A stretch of 64,000 bases of DNA from Sulfobacillus thermosulfidooxidans (GTDB taxonomy: Bacteria; Bacillota; Sulfobacillia; Sulfobacillales; Sulfobacillaceae), in the NCBI RefSeq assembly GCF_001280565.1, contig NZ_LGRO01000001.1, forward strand, positions 2,914,001 to 2,978,000. Reading direction: 5' to 3'. Made by a program: the position numbers and the translations under genes. This document shows positions 12,490-24,574 of the stretch, piece after piece; position 1 is the first letter of the stretch; each line of letters starts with the position of its first letter. Under the pieces are notes generated by a model. The model did not search any database and was not told the DNA's origin. It worked only from the letters and a program-made list of their open reading frames with translations.

Positions 12490-12809
12490 TGCCTTTTTGT
12501 AGAAAGATACGTAACGTGTTGTGACACAGATCTCTCAGGATGAAAGACTCCGAGGAATTGTTGCAACGAAAATGGACTTTTCTTCCTTTGCTCTTCCTTT
12601 CGTTGGATTTAACACCAAATCCTAGCTGAATTGAGGTTGAAGGACAAGCCAAGATTTTTTGATTTATGCCAAATATGAGGGCCAGTGATTTTTGTCACAG
12701 TTGATTGGTACGTGAACCTGTACATTGATTGCGAAGCGACTGATGAAGGATTTTAAGAACCCGGAGAAATCAAACGTCCTTATGCGCTCTTTGAAGGGAA
12801 GGGATTAAT
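12490..12809. other. Divergent intergenic region with a CRP-type box
   Basis: No gene. It separates the DoxX-like gene from the heme-copper-oxidase-like gene and holds the GTGA-N6-TCAC box listed separately. A GAAGGGAAGGG ribosome site precedes the ATG at 12810. Confidence 0.4.
12684..12699. promoter_or_regulatory. CRP/FNR-type box 1
   Basis: GTGA-TTTTTG-TCAC (12685-12698) fits the CRP-type consensus GTGA-N6-TCAC and lies 111 nt upstream of the membrane protein gene at 12810. The CRP-family regulator at 19.5 kb has the matching recognition residues RETxxR. Confidence 0.6.
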
Positions 12810-14135
12810 ATGCATCGATTTCCTGAATCTCAATGGACCATGCATTATTTTACGGTTAGTATGATTTCATTGTTGCTGGCTGAGATCGGCTGGTTTATGG
12901 GCTGGGGAAATCCTCTTAAGAATTTGGGGACGCCCTCAGTATTAGTTCTAGTTCATTTGACTACTATTGGTTTTTTGAGTCTAGCTATGTTAGGCGCTTT
13001 GCATCAGTTTTTGCCTATCATCACGCAAACCGAATTATCCAGTCAACGCGGTTCCGCTTTCACACTAGGGAGCATCATATTGGGGTTAGCCGTAATGATT
13101 GTGGGATTTTTAGCATCGCCCGGCGGAACGCTGCCTCAAGTTCCCTGGATTTTACCCCTAGGCGGGACCATCGTCATTATTGGCGTTCTTGTAGCATTAA
13201 AAACTCTGGGAACCATTCTCCAACGATCATGGCCTTGGACACTGCCTACGTGGTTTGTGGCTACGGGACTAGGATTTTTGATATTAACGATATTTGCTGG
13301 CGTGTTTTTATCCTTTTCTCTAGTGGTTCCTTCATGGTTTAGCTCTTCGGCTCTATACGTAATCGGTGGGAGAGGGTTGGCTGCTCACGTGATCGGAGGC
13401 ATGGGCGGCTGGTTAACATTAACGGCCATGGGTGTAAGCTATAGACTGTTAGGGATGTTTACGTTATCCAATGACCCTAGGGGATGGTGGGGATGGACTG
13501 CCTACGTGTTCACAGCAGTAGGGATTTTGGCTGTGTGGATATCCCGTTGGGTTGGCGCGAATATCGTCGCCGAAGTGGCATGGCTTGTGGTGCTTGTGGG
13601 TTTAGCCACTTACTTGGTGGATATTGGAAGGTTGTATCATCGACGTAAACGTCGGAAATTAGAGTTAAACGCGCGCTATGCTGTGGGTCCATTTATTTTT
13701 CTGAGTATTTTGCTAATATCGGCAATTTTTATTCCCATAAGTGGTCAGTTTACCGCCTTTGATTTGGGTGTGGTATTTCTAGGGCTTTATGGCTGGTTAG
13801 GAGGACTAGTCTTGACCCAGCTCTATAAAATTGTGCCGTTTCTCACTTGGATACACGTTTTCGGAAACCAAATAGGTCAAGGGAAGATGCCGCGGGTTCA
13901 AGATTTAGTTGACGAGAAGCGTGATCATTATGCCTTTTTTCTCTATTTCATTGCGACATTTGTGGCCGCTGTGGCTCTCGCACTGGGATGGTTTGCGCTT
14001 TTTCGGATTTTCATGTTTGGAATGTGGATTGCAACCTTGGATATCACTCGTGCGTTATATCATGCATCTTTGCCCTATCGGAATGCCAAACGGAAAAATG
14101 ATTCGACAAACTCGCTATCAAGATCGTTCTTCTAA
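12810..14135 (+). CDS. Heme-copper-oxidase subunit I-like / NnrS-like membrane protein
   Basis: A 441-residue, roughly 12-helix membrane protein. 'VHLTTIGFLSLAMLGALHQF' in helix 2 and 'HVIGGMGGWLTLTAMGVSYR' near helix 6 give histidines placed as in distant relatives of heme-copper oxidase subunit I and NnrS. The full set of CuB ligands of a true oxidase is not seen. It is a paralogue of the minus-strand gene at 15.7-16.9 kb. Nearby DUF2249 genes and a CRP-type regulator with matching boxes suggest a role in nitric-oxide or low-oxygen respiration. That role is inference; no reaction can be assigned. Confidence 0.55.
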   Translation: MHRFPESQWTMHYFTVSMISLLLAEIGWFMGWGNPLKNLGTPSVLVLVHLTTIGFLSLAMLGALHQFLPIITQTELSSQRGSAFTLGSIILGLAVMIVGFLASPGGTLPQVPWILPLGGTIVIIGVLVALKTLGTILQRSWPWTLPTWFVATGLGFLILTIFAGVFLSFSLVVPSWFSSSALYVIGGRGLAAHVIGGMGGWLTLTAMGVSYRLLGMFTLSNDPRGWWGWTAYVFTAVGILAVWISRWVGANIVAEVAWLVVLVGLATYLVDIGRLYHRRKRRKLELNARYAVGPFIFLSILLISAIFIPISGQFTAFDLGVVFLGLYGWLGGLVLTQLYKIVPFLTWIHVFGNQIGQGKMPRVQDLVDEKRDHYAFFLYFIATFVAAVALALGWFALFRIFMFGMWIATLDITRALYHASLPYRNAKRKNDSTNSLSRSFF

Positions 14136-14214
14136 TCACGAGAGCCTTGGCAGCAGCGATCCTTGTCATCGGCAACTATTCAAGTACAATCTACCAGTGG
14201 TCTAATTCTCACGG

Positions 14215-15247
14215 ATGGCGGGAACGGCCCGTTTTGCTTACAACTGGGCCTTGAATCAATGGCAGCAGCAGTCTGAGGCATGGAAGGCGGATTCCTCGTT
14301 GCCCAAGCCGTCGGACGTCGCTTTACGGCGTCAACTGAATGCGATTCAGCGCGAGCAGTTTCCTTGGATGCTAGATATCACCAAAAATGCGCCCCAGATG
14401 GCGATCATCCACTTGGGCCAAGCGTTTAAGAATTTCTTCGCCGGGACAGCCGCATATCCCGAAGCTGGGGTGGGTGTGAATGCATGAAACGTTGCGGTTC
14501 GTCGGGAAAGTCGTGGAGGGAACTATCTCACGCACCGCGGATCGCTGGTTTCTGAGTATCACCGTGGAGATTCCCGATCGGCACAGTGTCCGCCGCGAAA
14601 ACCAAGCGGTGGTCGGAGTGGATGTGGGTGCGTCCGCGTTGGCTACCCTCTCGACCGGAGAGAAGGTTGTGGGACCGAAAGCTTATGCCGCGACGTTGAA
14701 GAAACTCCGCCATGTATCTCAACACTTCAGTCGCCAGATGGAAGCCGCTAAAGTCCGCGCCGGACTGAAGCCCGGCGAACCCATTCCGAAAGGAATGCGC
14801 ATCCCCCGGTCGGAGACCATGCGGAAAACCCAACGGCGCATCGCTCGGCTCCATGCCCGGATTGCGAATATTCGGGCCAATACGTTGCATCAACTGACGA
14901 CCGATCTCGTCGAACGTTTCGATGTCATTGCCATCGAGGATCTGAACGTGGCCGGGATGCTCAAAAATCACCCGCTAGCCCGGTCCATTGCCTTTGGCGC
15001 ATTCCGACGCCAACTCGAATACAAAGCGGCCCAACGCGGCAAGATGGTGGTTGTGGTGAGCCGCTGGTATCCCAGCAGCAAAACGTGTTCGTCGTGTGGA
15101 TACAAACTGCCGAAAATGCCGCTCGCTATGCGGGAGTGGACGTGCCCAGAATGTCATACGCGCCACGACCGCGACGTGAACGCGGCGATCAATTTACGTC
15201 GAGTGGCCGAGAGTTCGGTGAGGGGCTCCTCACCCGTTCCGGCGTAA
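14215..15247 (+). pseudogene. tnpB: Decayed TnpB (IS200/IS605-type RNA-guided nuclease)
   Basis: Two frames together encode a degraded TnpB. The first part (14215-14487) holds 'AGTARFAYNWALNQW' but lacks the usual first 20-30 residues. The second part (14480-15247) holds the RuvC domain: Asp in 'VGVDVGASALATLS', Glu in 'VIAIEDLNVAGML', Asp in 'HDRDVNAAINL', plus the zinc ribbon 'CSSCG' and 'CPEC'. At the joint an internal deletion has removed the basic segment normally between them, and an in-frame TGA follows 'IPKLGWV' just before the second part. It is therefore inactive. GC content is higher than in the neighbouring genes, which suggests it was acquired. No TnpA is present. Confidence 0.88.
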
Positions 15248-15253
15248 GCCGGA
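15218..15253 (+). ncRNA. Possible omega-RNA hairpins at the end of the dead TnpB gene
   Basis: GGTGAGG/CCTCACC and CCGGC-GTAA-GCCGG form two compact hairpins overlapping the last codons and the stop of the TnpB remnant, the usual place of the guide-RNA scaffold of IS200/IS605 elements. The exact element end could not be located. Confidence 0.35.
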
Positions 15254-15651
15254 CTGCTCGGTGATAGTCTGGGGAGCGCCCTCCGGTGGACGACCGGCCA
15301 ATGACCCTAAGAAGCCGTGGCGCGATGAACCAGAAAGGTGGCAATAGAATTGATCAGGAATGGTCAGAAATGAATAAGTCCATCGGAACGGTACGAAGGA
15401 TTGTGGCATCAAGCCTCTCATCTGTTATGTTTCTTTCGTGAGGTAAAACAAAGAAATTTGGTCTATGGAGATTAGGGGCTTAATATCGAGTGCCTATTGA
15501 AAGTCAGATGACATTGACACCTTAAAATCGGAAATTCATCTTGTAGGATACTTCAGTACGATAAGTTAGGATATTTCAGTACGATAAGTCAGTTAAAGCG
15601 AAGACAAAAGAGATGGTTATCGGGCAATAGGCCTTGGCGATATTCCTTAAA
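15248..15651. other. Gene-free region after the TnpB remnant
   Basis: About 400 bp between the dead TnpB and the heme-copper-like gene. It holds the element's unrecognised right end and a tandem 23-bp repeat (listed separately). No supportable coding frame was seen. Confidence 0.4.
15544..15589. repeat. Tandem 23-bp direct repeat
   Basis: Two adjacent 23-bp units (15544-15566 and 15567-15589) differ at one base. The shared core is TTCAGTACGATAAGT. The repeat lies 63 nt beyond the stop of the minus-strand membrane protein gene. Its purpose is unknown; it could be a regulator site or slippage product. Confidence 0.7.
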
Positions 15652-16932
15652 TTACGCTCGATGACGGGAGAGGAAGAAGCCTCGTTGGACAATAATCTGG
15701 TATCCCATTAAGGCTACATGGATTAATGGCCAGAAAACAATTACAATTCCCGCGATGGCTATAGGTTCCCGGATTTGTTGCATCATGCCCCAAACTATTA
15801 GGGCACTGATGACAAATGCCAATGAAGCGTTGATAATTGGCAGTAAATGGGAATTAAATCGCTGGGCCATAAAAAATGCGGAAAATTCTTTATGACGAAT
15901 CTGCCTGACCATGACAAGGGAGAGAAGAAATGGAACAATGCGCGATTGATAAGTGAAAACGAAAGTGGTTGCACCGAGAACTAGTAGGGCAATTGTTAAG
16001 GAGGGGTCGTATAATAATTCTATTGCGGCCATTAGCCACAAAAGCCATCCTAATGCGACGCCGATGAAAACCGTATCCCACTTAGGAGATTGATGGTGTT
16101 TCGACAAAGAATAGATTTGCCACAATACCACAAGTGCGGTAAGGGTCCAAATCAGAGTGATGGGGAGTGCAAGAGTCGGTATCCATCTTCTTGCAAATTG
16201 CAAAATCCATCCAGTTAAAGCAAGAACGATGGGTAGCCACGGTCTGAGAGTATGCATTTTGGCCAGAGAAAACATGGGAAGTAATTTGATTTGAACGGCT
16301 AATACGAGCATAATAATCCAGCCGACCCAGGCTGCATTCAAGTGCTCTGGCAATAGGTGTAGGTAGCTCGTGAGCCCACTTAAACCTAAAACCATGGCCA
16401 AGCCGAAAATCCATGTGAGATTAATCGAAAATAATGCGATACAGACAGTCCATGTTAACTCATCCCAAGGACGTGTTGAGCTCATGATGCGATTTAGAGC
16501 GAAAATCGTAAAAATCACAATACTAAGAGCCATCAGCAATGCTCCGAAAGGGAGCAGCATTGCGTGATGAGCAGAGAAGCCTAAGAGAAACAACAGCAGA
16601 CCAACTCCATAGACAAGAAAGTGAGCAATCATGAATGAAGGCGATGCAGATACCACGTCAAAGACGACCGGTAACCATTGATAGAGCACTCCAAACATGG
16701 TCATGGTGAGGAATCCTAATGTAAGCATGTGTACGGTAACAATGGTAAAATTTGTCGTTAAAGCGTTCTCCAACAACTGCGAAGGTCTTAACCATAAACT
16801 CAAGCCCACCGCACAAATGCTCAACCATGCGGCCACAAAAAATAAGGCGGGTCCTATTAAGTGAGGGGACTGGCGAATATTGATGGTCGGTTTATATTCT
16901 CCAGCATGTTTCTTCATTGTCTCAATGTCCAT
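15652..16932 (-). CDS. Heme-copper-oxidase subunit I-like / NnrS-like membrane protein, second paralogue
   Basis: A 426-residue membrane protein with about 12 helices. It shares with the protein at 12.8 kb the helix 2 block, here 'VHMLTLGFLTMTMFGVLYQW', and the 'LPEHLNAAWVGWIIMLVLAV' helix. Histidines in these helices could bind haem, but a complete CuB site is not visible. The upstream gap to the divergent DUF2249 gene holds two CRP-type boxes. The setting suggests nitrosative or anaerobic respiration stress, but the catalytic role is unknown. The ATG at 16932 has no strong ribosome site (GAGGTTAAG). Confidence 0.55.
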   Translation of the reverse strand: MDIETMKKHAGEYKPTINIRQSPHLIGPALFFVAAWLSICAVGLSLWLRPSQLLENALTTNFTIVTVHMLTLGFLTMTMFGVLYQWLPVVFDVVSASPSFMIAHFLVYGVGLLLFLLGFSAHHAMLLPFGALLMALSIVIFTIFALNRIMSSTRPWDELTWTVCIALFSINLTWIFGLAMVLGLSGLTSYLHLLPEHLNAAWVGWIIMLVLAVQIKLLPMFSLAKMHTLRPWLPIVLALTGWILQFARRWIPTLALPITLIWTLTALVVLWQIYSLSKHHQSPKWDTVFIGVALGWLLWLMAAIELLYDPSLTIALLVLGATTFVFTYQSRIVPFLLSLVMVRQIRHKEFSAFFMAQRFNSHLLPIINASLAFVISALIVWGMMQQIREPIAIAGIVIVFWPLIHVALMGYQIIVQRGFFLSRHRA

Positions 16933-16996
16933 GACTTAACCTCAACTTCCTTCAGTATTCGACTACTTTTATCTTATTGTCTGAAGCGATGGAGAC

Positions 16997-17012
16997 TGTG
17001 TCATTTATCACA
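16997..17012. promoter_or_regulatory. CRP/FNR-type box 2
   Basis: TGTGT-CATTTA-TCACA differs by one base from TGTGA-N6-TCACA. It is 64 nt upstream of the minus-strand membrane gene start. Confidence 0.55.
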
Positions 17013-17163
17013 TTGCTAGATGGAAAACAAAAAATATGAATTCTGATGTAACAGCCTATTCGTTGCGAATGAAAGCAGAGACTAAATGGTCAGCGATAGC
17101 GCTTGCTCTTTTTTAGAAATTTATTTGAGTGCTCTGAATTTGTGAATTGAGGTATCTTTAGCC

Positions 17164-17181
17164 TTGTGATCAGAGTCACAA
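17164..17181. promoter_or_regulatory. CRP/FNR-type box 3 (perfect palindrome)
   Basis: TTGTGA-TCAGAG-TCACAA is a perfect 6+6 inverted repeat with the canonical 6-nt spacer, 82 nt upstream of the tandem DUF2249 gene. Together with box 2 it suggests that the divergent pair is controlled by one CRP-type activator. Confidence 0.7.
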
Positions 17182-17263
17182 CCGCGTGCGCAATGTTCGT
17201 GTAATGTTGTCGTAAAGATTATTGAGTTATCGATAGCATTTCAGAATAATGGGGGGAAAGGTT

Positions 17264-17770
17264 ATGGAACCCGTGGTGGTCGAAGTTAAAAGTATTTTAA
17301 AACAAGGTCTGTCATTATTTGGATATATGATGAATACCGTTAATCAGCTTGAGCCCGGCCAAAGTTTGATTGTTAAATCTTCGTTTAATCCGCGTCCTTT
17401 GGTTTCCCAAATGCGTCGACGCGGCTATCGCATTGAGCAAGAAAAGATTGGCAAAATGATGATTACCACTTTTATTCCCCAAAATCTGAGTCATGATCAG
17501 AATCGTTCTCATTCGGGTAACTTATCACGCTATGAGATCCGTGTGGATGGACCCGAAGTATTGTTAGACAACCGGGGACTGGTTCCACCAGAACCCATGC
17601 AGCGAACCTTGGCGACTCTTGAGGAAGTGCCTTTAAACAGTGTCGTTGTTATTCACAATGATCGCATTCCGGTATTCTTATTGGAATATCTCGATGATCA
17701 TGGTTTTCCGTATGAAACCATGGCCCAAGACGATGACTCGGCGATAGTCCGCATACTCAAAGTTCATTAA
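17264..17770 (+). CDS. Tandem DUF2249 protein
   Basis: A 168-residue cytoplasmic protein made of two DUF2249 (TusA-like alpha/beta) units. The first is the segment with 'VNQLEPGQSLIVKSSFNPRP'. The second begins with 'LDNRGLVPPEPMQRTL' and ends with 'DSAIVRI'. DUF2249 proteins are often encoded beside NO-handling and anaerobic respiratory genes; their function is not established. The ATG at 17264 is chosen over the ATG at 17249 because the purine-rich GGGGGGAAAGG lies between them as a ribosome site. A perfect CRP-type box lies upstream. Confidence 0.75.
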   Translation: MEPVVVEVKSILKQGLSLFGYMMNTVNQLEPGQSLIVKSSFNPRPLVSQMRRRGYRIEQEKIGKMMITTFIPQNLSHDQNRSHSGNLSRYEIRVDGPEVLLDNRGLVPPEPMQRTLATLEEVPLNSVVVIHNDRIPVFLLEYLDDHGFPYETMAQDDDSAIVRILKVH

Positions 17771-19471: not shown

Positions 19472-20122
19472 CTATAAGCCATCAAGAACTGTCCAATTTT
19501 TGAGGTGTGTGGCATCAAGAACGGTGATGTAACCATGACCATGGCTAATGAGATGATTGGAGGAGAGTAAATGGAGCGTTCGCGTAATCGTTTCTCGTTG
19601 AACACCAAGCATCCGTGCAAGTTCTTCGTGTGTAATGCGAATATGTGGACCCATTCGTTCTGTCAAGAGACTTAAAATGCCCGCAACTTGGGCGGCAACC
19701 GGGCGGCCTTTGGTATCAGCTATGGTTTCTTGAACAAGTCTTAAACGTGTTGCTAGCGTGCGGCACAGGGCTATGGAAAATTCAGGGATTTGATGTTGGA
19801 GATTCGTTACGTGATCTCTTGATATCCACAAGATGCTCGTTGGGGTTTCCATCGCTTTGGCCGTAGCAGGGTAGGGACTTTTATCCCAAAGACCGGCGAT
19901 GCCAATAATGTCTCCGGGTAACCAAATTCCAGTCGCAAAAACGTAGCCGTCAGAACTAGTTCGTTCCACCGAAATCCGTCCTTCTAAGACAATCCAAAGA
20001 CCAGTAGTTTCCTCTCCTTGATAAAATATTACTTCTCCTGTGGTAAATTTTCGGGTCAGGCTTGACGCTTCTAAGATGGGAACAGGGATAGAAGATAATA
20101 ACGGGATTTGATTCGGTAACAC
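19472..20122 (-). CDS. CRP/FNR-family transcription regulator
   Basis: A 216-residue regulator. The N-terminal cyclic-nucleotide-binding-type beta barrel ('FTTGEVIFYQGEETTGLWIV') and the long dimer helix ('IALCRTLATRLRLVQETI') precede a C-terminal winged helix ('ITHEELARMLGVQRETITRTL'). The recognition helix has RETITR, the same R-E-x3-R pattern by which CRP reads GTGA. This matches the three boxes at 12.7, 17.0 and 17.2 kb. There is no cysteine cluster as in FNR, so it is probably not an Fe-S oxygen sensor; the effector could be a nucleotide, haem or NO. It lies 134 nt downstream of the broken diguanylate cyclase gene. Confidence 0.85.
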   Translation of the reverse strand: MLPNQIPLLSSIPVPILEASSLTRKFTTGEVIFYQGEETTGLWIVLEGRISVERTSSDGYVFATGIWLPGDIIGIAGLWDKSPYPATAKAMETPTSILWISRDHVTNLQHQIPEFSIALCRTLATRLRLVQETIADTKGRPVAAQVAGILSLLTERMGPHIRITHEELARMLGVQRETITRTLHLLSSNHLISHGHGYITVLDATHLKNWTVLDGL

Positions 20123-20256: not shown

Positions 20257-20770
20257 TCACAAGGTTGTCGAGTAGTGATGGTGTCCAGTCTTTTGCTGGT
20301 ACATGGCATGATCCGAGCGTATTACCGCTTCATCAAAGTGCCCACCCATGGGCTCCCAACTCCAAACCACACTGATGCCGAGATTTATAACATGCCCTGG
20401 AGAGATGGTGAAGGGGACTGTTTCAATAGCCTCTTGAATACGCGAAAGGATTTGGGCACCATCATCAGAGTCTGTGCCAGGAAAAATCATCACAAACTCA
20501 TCACCGCCAAGGCGAATGATTTGATCCTCTGGGCGGCAAATATTTTTTAAACGAGCAACGGTTTGACGCAAAATATTATCGCCGGCTGCATGTCCAAACT
20601 GATCGTTAACCTCTTTAAATCGGTCGAGATCACAAAACAAAAGTCCTAGAGATGTCGATTGGAGTAGGGATGTCGCATAAATCTGTCCGAAGCTGCGAGT
20701 CATTGCCCCGGTTAATTCGTCGACTGTCAGTTGTTGATGGGTACGTTTGACTTGTTGGCGCAGTTCAAAC
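20257..20770 (-). pseudogene. 3' fragment of a diguanylate cyclase (GGDEF domain), cut off by an IS element
   Basis: The frame stays open from the IS right end (about 20770) through 'QLTVDELTGAMTR', 'LFCDLDRFKEVNDQFGH' and 'IIRLGGDEFVMIFPG'. The GGDEF active site is intact, and an inhibitory c-di-GMP site RxxD ('RPED') lies five residues before it. The linker upstream of the domain runs straight into the IS. The N-terminal sensor half is found on the far side at 22.6-23.3 kb. An internal ATG at 20703 could allow a bare GGDEF domain to be made, but it has no good ribosome site and would lose part of the domain's first helix. Confidence 0.85.
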
Positions 20771-20950
20771 CTTGAACCTCCCCGCCCTAAAGGACGGAGA
20801 TTCTGGGGGAACCCCCGTGGCTGCGTCGCGGGTCGTGAGACCCTCGGAGTGACCCTCCTGACTCGCCACCGCTTATCCCGCCAGCAATTTCCCGGGGCTC
20901 AGCCGGACTACGCCTTAACGCCCTTTTGAGAAGGACGGGACGGCGATACG
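20771..20950 (-). ncRNA. Predicted omega-RNA scaffold of the IS605-type element
   Basis: The right-end hairpin and the GC-rich sequence overlapping the last codons of tnpB correspond to the usual site of the guide RNA for TnpB. The guide would be the flanking target sequence downstream of TTCAA, that is, the GGDEF gene itself. This is inference from element architecture. Confidence 0.5.
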
Positions 20951-22097
20951 TGATCCGTTGGGGTACCAAGAACTCCCCGGGGCGAATCGCCCCATGCATC
21001 CCCTTGTTGAGGATGTTCACCGCCCCGACGCCGTCGCGGTGCGCCCGATAGCCACAGGCGCGACAACGGTAGGTGCGGCCCGCCACCTTGGTGAGATGGC
21101 CACAATGCGGACACGTTTGGGACGTGTACGCCTCACGGATTTTTACGAGCTGGATGCCATGTCGACGAAGCTTGTATTCCAAGTATTGTTCTAACCGCCC
21201 GAACTCCAGCGCCCCCACCTCTTGGTTGGTCCGCCGGGATCGACGGTGTCGTTGGTGGTGGTTGAGGGTCCCAAGATCCCCCACGTACAAGAGGGTGATG
21301 CCGTAAGCGAGACAAAACGCGACGATCTGATTGGCTGCATGATGCAAGGCGTTGCGGGCGACCCGTTCGGCTTTCTGGCTGGTGCGGTATTGGGCGCGGT
21401 TCAGACGCTGGCGTCGTCGTGACCCGGGTTGCGTGCGAGCCCGTTTCTTGCGGAGTTTGGCTTGGGCCTTGGCCCGACCCTGCTTCACGGACCGCAAGCC
21501 CCGCCCGGAAATCGCCAAGGCTTCTTGGCCATCCGTTACCATGCCCAAATGAATCACGCCGATATCCAGCCCTCCGGCTTTGCCAGACGCCATGGGCACG
21601 GGATCGGGAATCTCACGGGTGATGGTGATGTAGAGTTCCCCAAAGCCCAACTCGGCCTGGACCACCCGCCCGGGAGGCATCGCCTCCGGAAGATGCACCC
21701 GAATGGGTTCACGCCCCCGTCCGCGGGGTAAAAGCAGATGCGGGCCTTGCCTCTTAAGCGCTTGGCCCTTAAAGATGGGGTTAAAGTATCGGCGGAACCG
21801 CCAGGGATACCGGGCCTGCTGATCCCCGTTCTGCCGTTTGGTGCGCACGCCGTCAATCGTCGCGCAGAATTTCTCGATGAGGGCTTGGACGATTTGCGAG
21901 TGGAGCGGGAAGCGTTGCTTGAAATGCGCCTTGAGTTGGGATTCCGTCGGCCACGGCCAATGCCGCCGCCGACAGAAACGATGAATCTTGACCAAACGCG
22001 TCCACAAGTCCCCCGCGGCGCGGCGCGCTGCCGACGCTTTGTCCCATTCCGTGGGGGACAGAGCAACCCGATAGGTGAAGACCGTCGTCTCTTGCAC
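20787..22097 (-). CDS. tnpB: TnpB RNA-guided nuclease, variant active site
   Basis: A 436-residue TnpB, complete from a GTG start with an AAAGGGGGGG ribosome site. RuvC-I Asp is in 'GGLDIGVIHLG' and RuvC-III Asp in 'AHRDGVGAVNIL'. The zinc ribbon is 'CPHCG' and 'CRACG'. The RuvC-II position reads 'LLYVGDLGTL', with Gly where the catalytic Glu normally stands (compare 'VIAIEDL' in the other TnpB here). A conserved-looking Glu in 'VKIREAYTSQTC' may replace it, as reported for TnpB clades with relocated RuvC-II residues. The last 65 or so residues overlap the predicted omega-RNA and are low-complexity. It would cut DNA at guide-matched sites. Confidence 0.85.
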   Translation of the reverse strand: MQETTVFTYRVALSPTEWDKASAARRAAGDLWTRLVKIHRFCRRRHWPWPTESQLKAHFKQRFPLHSQIVQALIEKFCATIDGVRTKRQNGDQQARYPWRFRRYFNPIFKGQALKRQGPHLLLPRGRGREPIRVHLPEAMPPGRVVQAELGFGELYITITREIPDPVPMASGKAGGLDIGVIHLGMVTDGQEALAISGRGLRSVKQGRAKAQAKLRKKRARTQPGSRRRQRLNRAQYRTSQKAERVARNALHHAANQIVAFCLAYGITLLYVGDLGTLNHHQRHRRSRRTNQEVGALEFGRLEQYLEYKLRRHGIQLVKIREAYTSQTCPHCGHLTKVAGRTYRCRACGYRAHRDGVGAVNILNKGMHGAIRPGEFLVPQRITYRRPVLLKRALRRSPAEPREIAGGISGGESGGSLRGSHDPRRSHGGSPRISVL

Positions 22098-22150
22098 GGA
22101 GCACCCCCCCCTTTCTTGACGAACCGTTACGGTAATTATACGCGTGGTCT

Positions 22151-22566
22151 ATGGTGAAAACAAACGATGACCGAACGGGCCGGCATGGTGTGTTTCACTG
22201 ACATGTTCACTGGGTCTTTGTGGCCCAGTATCGGCGGTGGGTCTTGACGCAAGACATCGTGGAGGACCTGCGGACCATGTTTGCCGATGTGTGCCGGGAC
22301 TTTGAAGCCCCTTGAGAGGAATTCGACGGCGAGCGGGACCATGGGCATTTGCTGATCACCTACCCACCTAAGGTCGCCCTGTCTCGACGGGTGAATAGCC
22401 TCCAAGGCGTCTCATCCCGCCTGATCCGCCAAAAACATGACCCCCTATCGAGCGAGCGCTATGGGGCGGCAGCCTCTGGTCCCCCAGTTATTTTGCCGGA
22501 TCCGCAGGCGGAGCACCTTTGTCGATCATCAAACAATACATCGAACAGCAGGAAACCCCGGATTGA
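22151..22566 (+). pseudogene. tnpA: TnpA Y1 transposase of the IS605-type element, inactivated
   Basis: The frame starts 'VKTNDDRTGRHGVFH' and continues 'VAQYRRWVLTQDIVEDL', the HUH-like region 'GERDHGHLLITYPPK', then 'NSLQGVSSRLIRQ'. After a frameshift near 22455 it ends with 'PLSIIKQYIEQQETPD', which contains the catalytic Tyr. Two in-frame TGA codons (after 'GVFH' and after 'DFEAP') and the frameshift make it non-functional. HUH reads HGH, which is also abnormal. It diverges from tnpB. Confidence 0.85.
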
Positions 22567-22569
22567 CCC

Positions 22570-23283
22570 CTACGGGGTCAGCGCCTGATATCTCCGCCCT
22601 GCAGTCCGGAGTTTTACGGCGCATCCCGATAAAATCGCCCAAAGAAATAATCCGCCAATCCAAATTGTCGGATAATCAGTACGGTGATGTTGAATCCACC
22701 AAATGTCATGCACGAAAAGTGCAGTGGTCAATAATCCAGCTAACATGTAGATTACGCTTTGTTTCCGTGGCCGTTTCCAAAACGAATAGATACTCAACCC
22801 CACAATGGCTGTGGCACCGCCACCATAAATCAGAACTTTGACGACGATAATCGCCCAACTAGGATGAACGATGGCGATCCAAAACCCGTCGGGAATGGGT
22901 TTGAGAACAGGATTCCATGCAAGTCCGGGGAGATTAAGGAGAATGAAAAAAGCTATGCCAATAACCCAGAGGACAGCAAAATGGCGCCATTTACGCAGGT
23001 GTAATAATGCCAGTTGGGCATCAATGACAGCGACTTCGGTAAGATAGGCAGTGGGGAGAAAAAACCGGCTCCAGATGCGAGCACTCTCTTCGTCTTGGCT
23101 CATCAACAACAAGGCGAATACCGCCCAAAAGATACTCCCTAAAAACATAATCAGAACCACTGGCCTGGCGATACGGTCCCAAAAGCTACCCCAATAGCTT
23201 GAAATTAAGGCTCCGGATACTAAGTAAACCAAAGACGTCGCCCAAAGAGGAACGATAGCCCAAGGCATCGATAAGTGATCCAT
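22570..23283 (-). pseudogene. 5' fragment of a 7TM-GGDEF diguanylate cyclase (membrane sensor half)
   Basis: A 237-residue frame with seven predicted membrane helices at about residues 9-28, 39-60, 73-93, 102-120, 139-165, 174-192 and 200-220, like the N-terminal 7TM sensor of histidine kinases and diguanylate cyclases. After the last helix comes a charged linker 'KLRTAGRRYQ'. The stop codon (22570-22572) lies inside the left-end hairpin of the IS, so the native gene did not end here. On the other side the linker resumes as 'ELRQQVKRTHQQ' and leads to the GGDEF domain. A truncated membrane protein may still be made. Confidence 0.75.
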
Positions 23284-23380: not shown

Positions 23381-23635
23381 TCAAAGAAGTGGCATGGGTT
23401 TTTCAAAATCCTCTTGCCATTTTACAAGACGAAAAATCCAGCGTTTAGGCCCTTCTTCATCCATATGAACACGTCCACCTGGCCGCAGTTGTTGAAATTC
23501 CTGGATGAAGGGAGCGGGATTGTGATTGGCTTCTAAAATGAGCGTGTCGCCAATTGTGAGATTGTCAAAGGCTTTAAGTAAATGCCAATGACGGTGTTTA
23601 GCGGGAAATTGAGATACTTTTTTCTGGTAAATCAT
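23381..23635 (-). CDS. DUF2249 protein, single domain
   Basis: An 84-residue protein, start ATG at 23635 with AAGAAGGGG ribosome site; the longer open frame upstream has no family similarity. The DUF2249 pattern is visible: 'HWHLLKAFDNLTIGDTLIL', 'NHNPAPFIQEF' and a closing 'EGPKRWIFRLVKW'. It is divergent from the cytochrome b gene and near the broken 7TM-GGDEF gene. The function is unknown; DUF2249 proteins recur with NO and anaerobic respiratory genes, and this is one of three such genes in the window. Confidence 0.75.
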   Translation of the reverse strand: MIYQKKVSQFPAKHRHWHLLKAFDNLTIGDTLILEANHNPAPFIQEFQQLRPGGRVHMDEEGPKRWIFRLVKWQEDFEKPMPLL

Positions 23636-23914
23636 GAAGCACCCCTTCTTTGGTAATTTGTGGGAAGTTTTTCTCATCCCTTGTCTTTTCAATTTTATGT
23701 CTTGTTGTGCCTGGACACATCGGCCATTTGGGATGCCTAAATGAAGCAATGCCAAAGAGCTACCAAAATTTCGTAAAAATAATACATTTGTTATCAAGAT
23801 TTGATACGTTATAACTATCTCGGCACGATGATTCGATTTCAAAAAAGTCGGCCTGCGCCAAGTTTGTTCTGATATCGATAATGAATGCAAAAATGATGGC
23901 AGGGAGGGAAGCTG

Positions 23915-24574
23915 ATGAATTTAACACTGATTTTACGACAAAAGATGGGGAAATTGTTTTCGCTTGATACCTGGCTTCCCACAGAATTGCCAGAGTATGC
24001 TACGGGCTTTATGTATACTTTAGGATCTTTAACCGCCTCCAGTTTTGTGATCCTCTTGCTTTCTGGGATTGTGATGGCAGCGAATGGACCACAGTGGTGG
24101 ACTATTTCTCATCTGGGGTTTTTTGTCCGGGGTGTTCATTTTTGGTCTGTGCAAGCGTTCTTTTTCTTTATGGTTATGCATCTATTGCGCGTATTCTTTT
24201 CCGGAGCCTGGCGAGGAGGACGGGAGAGAACCTGGTTATTAGGTACCCTTGCTCTTCTTGTTGCGATACCTACGGCATTTACAGGCTATCTTATGCGCGG
24301 TGATTTTTATTCCCAATGGAATGCGGTTCAGGCTAAAGACGGGCTCAATGCGTTGGGCTTCGCTTGGTTTAACACCTTAAATGCCGGTCAAATGTATGGA
24401 CTGCATGTGATTGTGTTTCCGTTTGTTTTGGGCTACATCATCGCGGTGCATATTGCTATGGTGCGTATTAAAGGCGTCGTGCCGCCCTATCCGACTCATG
24501 AAGAGTTGATCGCCCAAGGGGTTATTAAACCATCCTCACCTAAGGAGGTGCCTCATGTACCATCCGGACATTGA
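23915..24574 (+). CDS. Cytochrome b (b6-type N-terminal subunit)
   Basis: A 219-residue integral membrane protein that carries the two b haems of a quinol-oxidising complex. The four haem ligands are H75 and H89 (13 residues between) and H164 and H179 (14 residues between). The second spacing is that of cytochrome b6 and Gram-positive QcrB, not mitochondrial cytochrome b. Four membrane helices are evident. The gene overlaps the next by 20 nt, so translation is coupled. A GGAGGGAAG ribosome site precedes the ATG. No Rieske gene is adjacent. Confidence 0.88.
   Translation: MNLTLILRQKMGKLFSLDTWLPTELPEYATGFMYTLGSLTASSFVILLLSGIVMAANGPQWWTISHLGFFVRGVHFWSVQAFFFFMVMHLLRVFFSGAWRGGRERTWLLGTLALLVAIPTAFTGYLMRGDFYSQWNAVQAKDGLNALGFAWFNTLNAGQMYGLHVIVFPFVLGYIIAVHIAMVRIKGVVPPYPTHEELIAQGVIKPSSPKEVPHVPSGH

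What the first reader, a model, noticed from the sequence alone, without database searches (positions are those of the whole stretch)
20257..23283. A 7TM diguanylate cyclase gene is interrupted by an IS605-type element in its linker
The membrane-sensor half (22570-23283) ends with a stop codon inside the IS left-end hairpin, and the GGDEF half (20257-20770) is open right up to the IS right end. The linkers 'KLRTAGRRYQ' and 'ELRQQVKRTHQQ' meet in the same direction, and the GGDEF and RxxD sites are intact. An ancestral strain would have had a c-di-GMP sensor gene just upstream of the CRP-type regulator.
Basis: partly seen in the sequence, partly recalled or inferred. Interest (0 to 1): 0.62.

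Follow-up and report, generated by a model that had tools for sequence, protein, structure and literature searches.

The report
Jumping element splits signalling enzyme gene
A common type of bacterial jumping DNA element (IS605 type) has landed inside a gene for a membrane-bound c-di-GMP-making enzyme and cut it in two; a relative that lacks the element shows the unsplit site, so this is a clear but ordinary gene disruption.

Summary
The split is real. On the minus strand, a 1,857-bp IS605-type element (20772-22628) lies inside a 7TM-GGDEF diguanylate cyclase gene. A same-genus genome (G003) carries the same gene at the same syntenic place without the element; its sequence is continuous across the site (CATTTTGT|GGTTTGAATTG against window GATTTTAT|IS|GGTTTGAACTG). 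No base was gained or lost. More distant relatives carry intact 7TM-GGDEF genes, mostly about 390-440 codons. First, the insertion lies in the last transmembrane helix (WAIL|WFELRQQ), not between two linkers: 'SGCAVKLRTAGRRYQALTP' is element DNA. Second, the neighbouring CRP-type gene is not part of a conserved pair: it is absent beside the gene in G003 and sits elsewhere in other relatives. The element's own transposase gene is dead (two stops, one frameshift), while tnpB is intact and under purifying selection. That TnpB fits the described 'alternative glutamate' (Ealt, D-Phi-G) class. Its predicted guide is the first bases of the GGDEF half, as expected for this family. The G003 copy also carries a one-base frameshift, so the gene may be dispensable. 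Ordinary biology, well documented here.

The parts
22629..23283 (-). N-terminal, membrane half of the 7TM-GGDEF gene (218 codons, ending WAIL plus one base)
   Evidence: AF2 model has seven helices, TM7 starting at residue 207
22570..22628 (-). Element-encoded tail added to the membrane ORF (SGCAVKLRTAGRRYQALTP, then TAG)
   Evidence: lies inside the left end as defined by the G005 copy and by the empty site
20772..22628 (-). IS605-type element, 1857 bp; left end at 22628 after TTTAT, right end at 20772 ending GTTCAA
   Evidence: empty site in G003; intact homologous element in G005; ends compared among copies
22629..22633 (-). Target / presumed TAM sequence TTTAT flanking the left end
   Evidence: TTTAT before the left end in six of six distinct well-aligned copies
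20787..22097 (-). tnpB, intact, 436 aa, RNA-guided nuclease family with alternative catalytic glutamate (D178, E322, D355)
22150..22565 (+). tnpA (Y1/HUH transposase) pseudogene: two in-frame TGA codons, one frameshift, HUH motif reads HGH
   Evidence: G005 copy is intact, 138 aa
20772..20950 (-). Predicted right-end (omega/re) RNA region, strongly conserved and structured
   Evidence: conservation with G005, fold; weak sub-threshold Rfam matches only
20752..20771 (-). Predicted TnpB guide: first 20 bases of the GGDEF half
   Evidence: position next to right end; its first 16 bases are unique in the genome; inferred from ISDra2 (PMC8612924)
20257..20771 (-). C-terminal GGDEF half of the interrupted gene; first in-frame start is ATG at 20703, inside the GGDEF domain
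19472..20122 (-). CRP/FNR-type regulator downstream; not a conserved neighbour of the cyclase

Best explanation
An IS200/IS605-family element with divergent tnpA and tnpB inserted 3' of a TTTAT (inside TTTTAT) on the coding strand of an accessory 7TM-GGDEF diguanylate cyclase gene, cutting it in TM7, without target duplication or loss. Shown: the split, the empty site, the boundaries, the tnpA lesions and the intact tnpB. Inferred: the membrane half is a dead-end 237-aa protein; the GGDEF half has no usable start outside the domain, so no normal cyclase is made and the membrane sensor is uncoupled; the element cannot now excise by its own transposase; its TnpB with a right-end RNA, if expressed, would recognise TTTAT plus the GGDEF-half sequence, that is, an allele without the element, and so favour keeping the insertion.
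For: Syntenic uninterrupted locus in G003. Intact 7TM-GGDEF proteins in relatives. Homologous intact element in G005 ending at matching places. TTTAT flank and TTCAA right end in other copies, matching the IS608 layout TTAC / TCAA (PMC5934647). tnpA broken, tnpB open with dN/dS 0.11-0.14 and a branch change ratio like the other elements. Both gene halves show dN/dS 0.08-0.15 against G003, so the gene was constrained for most of that divergence and the insertion is comparatively late.
Against: No strain of the same species without the element could be examined; G003 is another species of the genus and its site reads TTTGT, not TTTAT. The G003 copy has a one-base frameshift in a T tract, real or a sequencing error. 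Expression and TnpB activity are not tested.
Confidence: 0.95

Rival explanations
1. The two halves are separate functional genes that happen to flank the element, for example a stand-alone 7TM protein and a stand-alone GGDEF protein.
For: Both halves are free of further stops or frameshifts in the window.
Against: G003 and more distant relatives encode the two parts as one continuous unit; the join is base-exact; the GGDEF half has its first start inside the domain.
Confidence: 0.02
2. After the insertion the GGDEF half is still translated from the internal ATG (20703) or by read-through from the element and gives an unregulated, soluble cyclase.
For: Open frame continues 126 bases into the element; GGDEF and RxxD motifs intact.
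Against: No ATG/GTG/TTG upstream of 20703 in that frame; starting there removes the DELTG motif at the domain's start.
Confidence: 0.1
3. The gene was already dispensable and decaying in this lineage before the insertion.
For: Found in only 2 of 8 genus genomes, G003 copy frameshifted, 18 GGDEF matches in this genome.
Against: Window halves carry no other lesion, and dN/dS is low in both.
Confidence: 0.3

Closest known systems
IS200/IS605 family elements (IS608, ISDra2, IS605)
   Same: Y1 transposase gene plus tnpB, hairpin ends, insertion 3' of a short T-rich target kept on the left flank, no target duplication, right end ending TCAA (PMC5934647, PMC8612924)
   Different: Target is TTTAT rather than TTAC or TTGAT; tnpA is a pseudogene in this copy
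Ealt, D-Phi-G class of TnpB (NAR 2023, PMC10711439)
   Same: Fits the published motif ExxxxxxCxxC...CxxC...D with D-I-G at RuvC-I; canonical glutamate replaced by glycine
   Different: Not the DPG 'pro-Fanzor' clade; partner is a Y1 transposase, not an IS607 serine recombinase
Membrane-bound GGDEF diguanylate cyclases with a seven-helix N-terminal sensor
   Same: Seven helices then a short linker and a GGDEF domain with RxxD
   Different: The membrane part matches no Pfam or NCBIfam model convincingly; the gene is interrupted here

Membership tests
IS200/IS605 family | HUH/Y1 transposase gene (PF01797) | tested here: met
   Remnant detected at window 22190-22551 (78.1 and 35.2 bits); intact in G005 homologue
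IS200/IS605 family | Insertion 3' of a fixed short target, no target-site duplication | tested here: met
   TTTAT in six of six well-aligned copies; base-exact empty site in G003
IS200/IS605 family | Subterminal hairpins at both ends | tested here: met
   Folds of left and right ends
IS200/IS605 family | Functional transposase in this copy | tested here: not met
   Two TGA codons and a frameshift in tnpA. This lowers the mobility of the copy; it is not a condition of family membership, as the intact G005 relative shows
TnpB, Ealt D-Phi-G class | Glutamate six residues before the zinc finger, D-Phi-G at RuvC-I | tested here: met
   Published motif matches at D178, E322; aligns with the glutamate of viral TnpB-like protein L79
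TnpB, Ealt D-Phi-G class | RNA-guided DNA cleavage | not testable with these tools
   Needs an assay
GGDEF diguanylate cyclase | GGDEF active site motif and Pfam domain | tested here: met
   PF00990 E=2.4e-30, RLGGDEF, RPED
GGDEF diguanylate cyclase | One continuous reading frame with its sensor in this genome | tested here: not met
   Interrupted by the element
GGDEF diguanylate cyclase | Makes c-di-GMP | not testable with these tools
   Needs an assay

The most novel reading that the evidence does not exclude
The transposase-dead element persists because its alternative-glutamate TnpB, guided by the interrupted cyclase gene, cuts incoming intact alleles, making the loss of this c-di-GMP sensor self-enforcing in the population.
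Probability: 0.08. Interest if true: 0.5.

Novelty: new member of a known kind. Interest (0 to 1): 0.2.

Why it matters
It is a clean example, with an empty site in a relative, of an IS605-type element inactivating a signalling gene. It also gives a defined target motif (TTTAT) and a predicted guide for a TnpB of the Ealt D-Phi-G class. Beyond that it corrects the annotation of one locus.

Tried and rejected
Naming the organism through genome contigs: two scans used, the first found nothing and the second found only distant GGDEF proteins; near relatives seem to be left out. Alignment A1 was too diverse for that search. Rfam gave only sub-threshold matches at the right end, HgcC and sot0042, not used as evidence. 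PDB fold search of the membrane half gave generic 7TM bundles with no match at E<=0.001; no sensor family is claimed.

Full report
Observation. Reading the minus strand, the region holds a 237-codon membrane ORF (22570-23283), a tnpB gene (20787-22097), and a GGDEF-domain frame (20257-20771 and onward into the element). Pfam gives GGDEF at E=2.4e-30 for the last, TnpB domains for the middle ORF, and nothing for the membrane half. The opposite strand between the membrane ORF and tnpB carries a Y1 transposase remnant.

Empty site. A search of 61 genomes found one close relative of the membrane half, in a same-genus genome, G003, at about 85% identity. In that locus the sequence runs without interruption from the membrane part into the GGDEF part. 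The window's left flank aligns at 86% up to the insertion point and its right flank at 83% from the next base on. The site reads GGGCCATTTTGT|GGTTTGAATTGCG in G003 and GGGCGATTTTAT|element|GGTTTGAACTGCG in the window. More distant relatives in the family and order encode single open frames of 388 to 501 codons (stop to stop), most about 390-440, holding both parts.

Boundaries. The G005 genome carries a homologous element of 1,854 bp whose tnpA is intact (138 aa); aligned with it, the window's element is 20772-22628, 1,857 bp. In six distinct copies whose left ends align well, the bases before the element are TTTAT, and right ends mostly read GTTCAA. IS608 uses TTAC on the left and TCAA on the right and inserts 3' of its target (PMC5934647). 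The layout is therefore that of the IS200/IS605 family. It follows that SGCAVKLRTAGRRYQALTP is encoded by the element and that the break falls after WAIL in the seventh helix. An AlphaFold2 model of the membrane half, from an 11-sequence alignment, has seven helices, the last beginning at residue 207 (mean pLDDT 81.4).

State of the element. tnpA has two in-frame TGA codons, a frameshift, and its HUH motif reads HGH. tnpB is open; dN/dS is 0.14 against G005 and 0.11 against G002, and its branch carries 42 nonsynonymous to 70 synonymous changes, between the ratios of the other two. The canonical RuvC-II glutamate is a glycine (YVGDLG), and a glutamate stands six residues before the zinc finger (E322); the published regular expression for such proteins matches at D178 with a DIG motif. 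This places it in the Ealt, D-Phi-G class described in PMC10711439. By the ISDra2 precedent (PMC8612924), the target sequence also serves as the TAM and the guide is the DNA next to the right end; here that is GGTTTGAACTGCGCCAACAA, whose first 16 bases occur once in the genome. Guide and TAM are inferred, not shown.

State of the gene. Between the window and G003, dN/dS is 0.12 and 0.15 for two parts of the membrane half and 0.08 for the GGDEF half, against 0.05 for the neighbouring decarboxylase. The gene was under constraint for most of that divergence, so the insertion is comparatively recent. G003 has a one-base difference in a T tract that breaks its frame; it may be real or an assembly error. 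The gene is found in 2 of 8 genus genomes, and this genome has 18 GGDEF matches, so loss of this one may be tolerated. The GGDEF half could only start at the ATG at 20703, after the DELTG motif, so an active free cyclase is unlikely.

Neighbourhood. In G003 the gene lies between the decarboxylase and DUF2249/cytochrome b genes as in the window, but without the CRP-type gene; its CRP homologue sits at 1.086 Mb beside relatives of window genes 12795-14135, 15652-16935 and 17237-17770. In G005, G006 and G002 the CRP gene is on a different contig from the decarboxylase locus, and the cyclase is absent there. The proposed ancestral link with the CRP-type regulator is therefore not supported, although the CRP gene may already have been in place here when the element inserted. 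The name cytochrome b for the gene at 23915-24574 rests on the look of its sequence, not on a family search.

Verdict. A real, well-bounded insertion of a known kind of element into a signalling gene.

Noticed in passing
L010 (G003), about 1896-1944: The uninterrupted G003 homologue has one T fewer in a T tract than the window, which breaks its frame upstream of the GGDEF part; real decay or sequencing error.
   Followed up: partly
window 12795-17770 and 19472-20122; L089: Genes at 12795-14135, 15652-16935, 17237-17770 and the CRP-type gene surround the decarboxylase here but lie together at another place in G003, which points to a rearrangement or transfer of that cluster.
   Followed up: partly
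L007 (G000 C1:1739364-1739851) and L002/L006 (C1:954345-954801): Short derivatives with both ends of this element but little between them, so this family has also produced small non-autonomous forms in the genome.
   Followed up: no
window 17249-17770 and 23381-23890: Two DUF2249 proteins lie on either side of the decarboxylase, CRP and cyclase genes.
   Followed up: no
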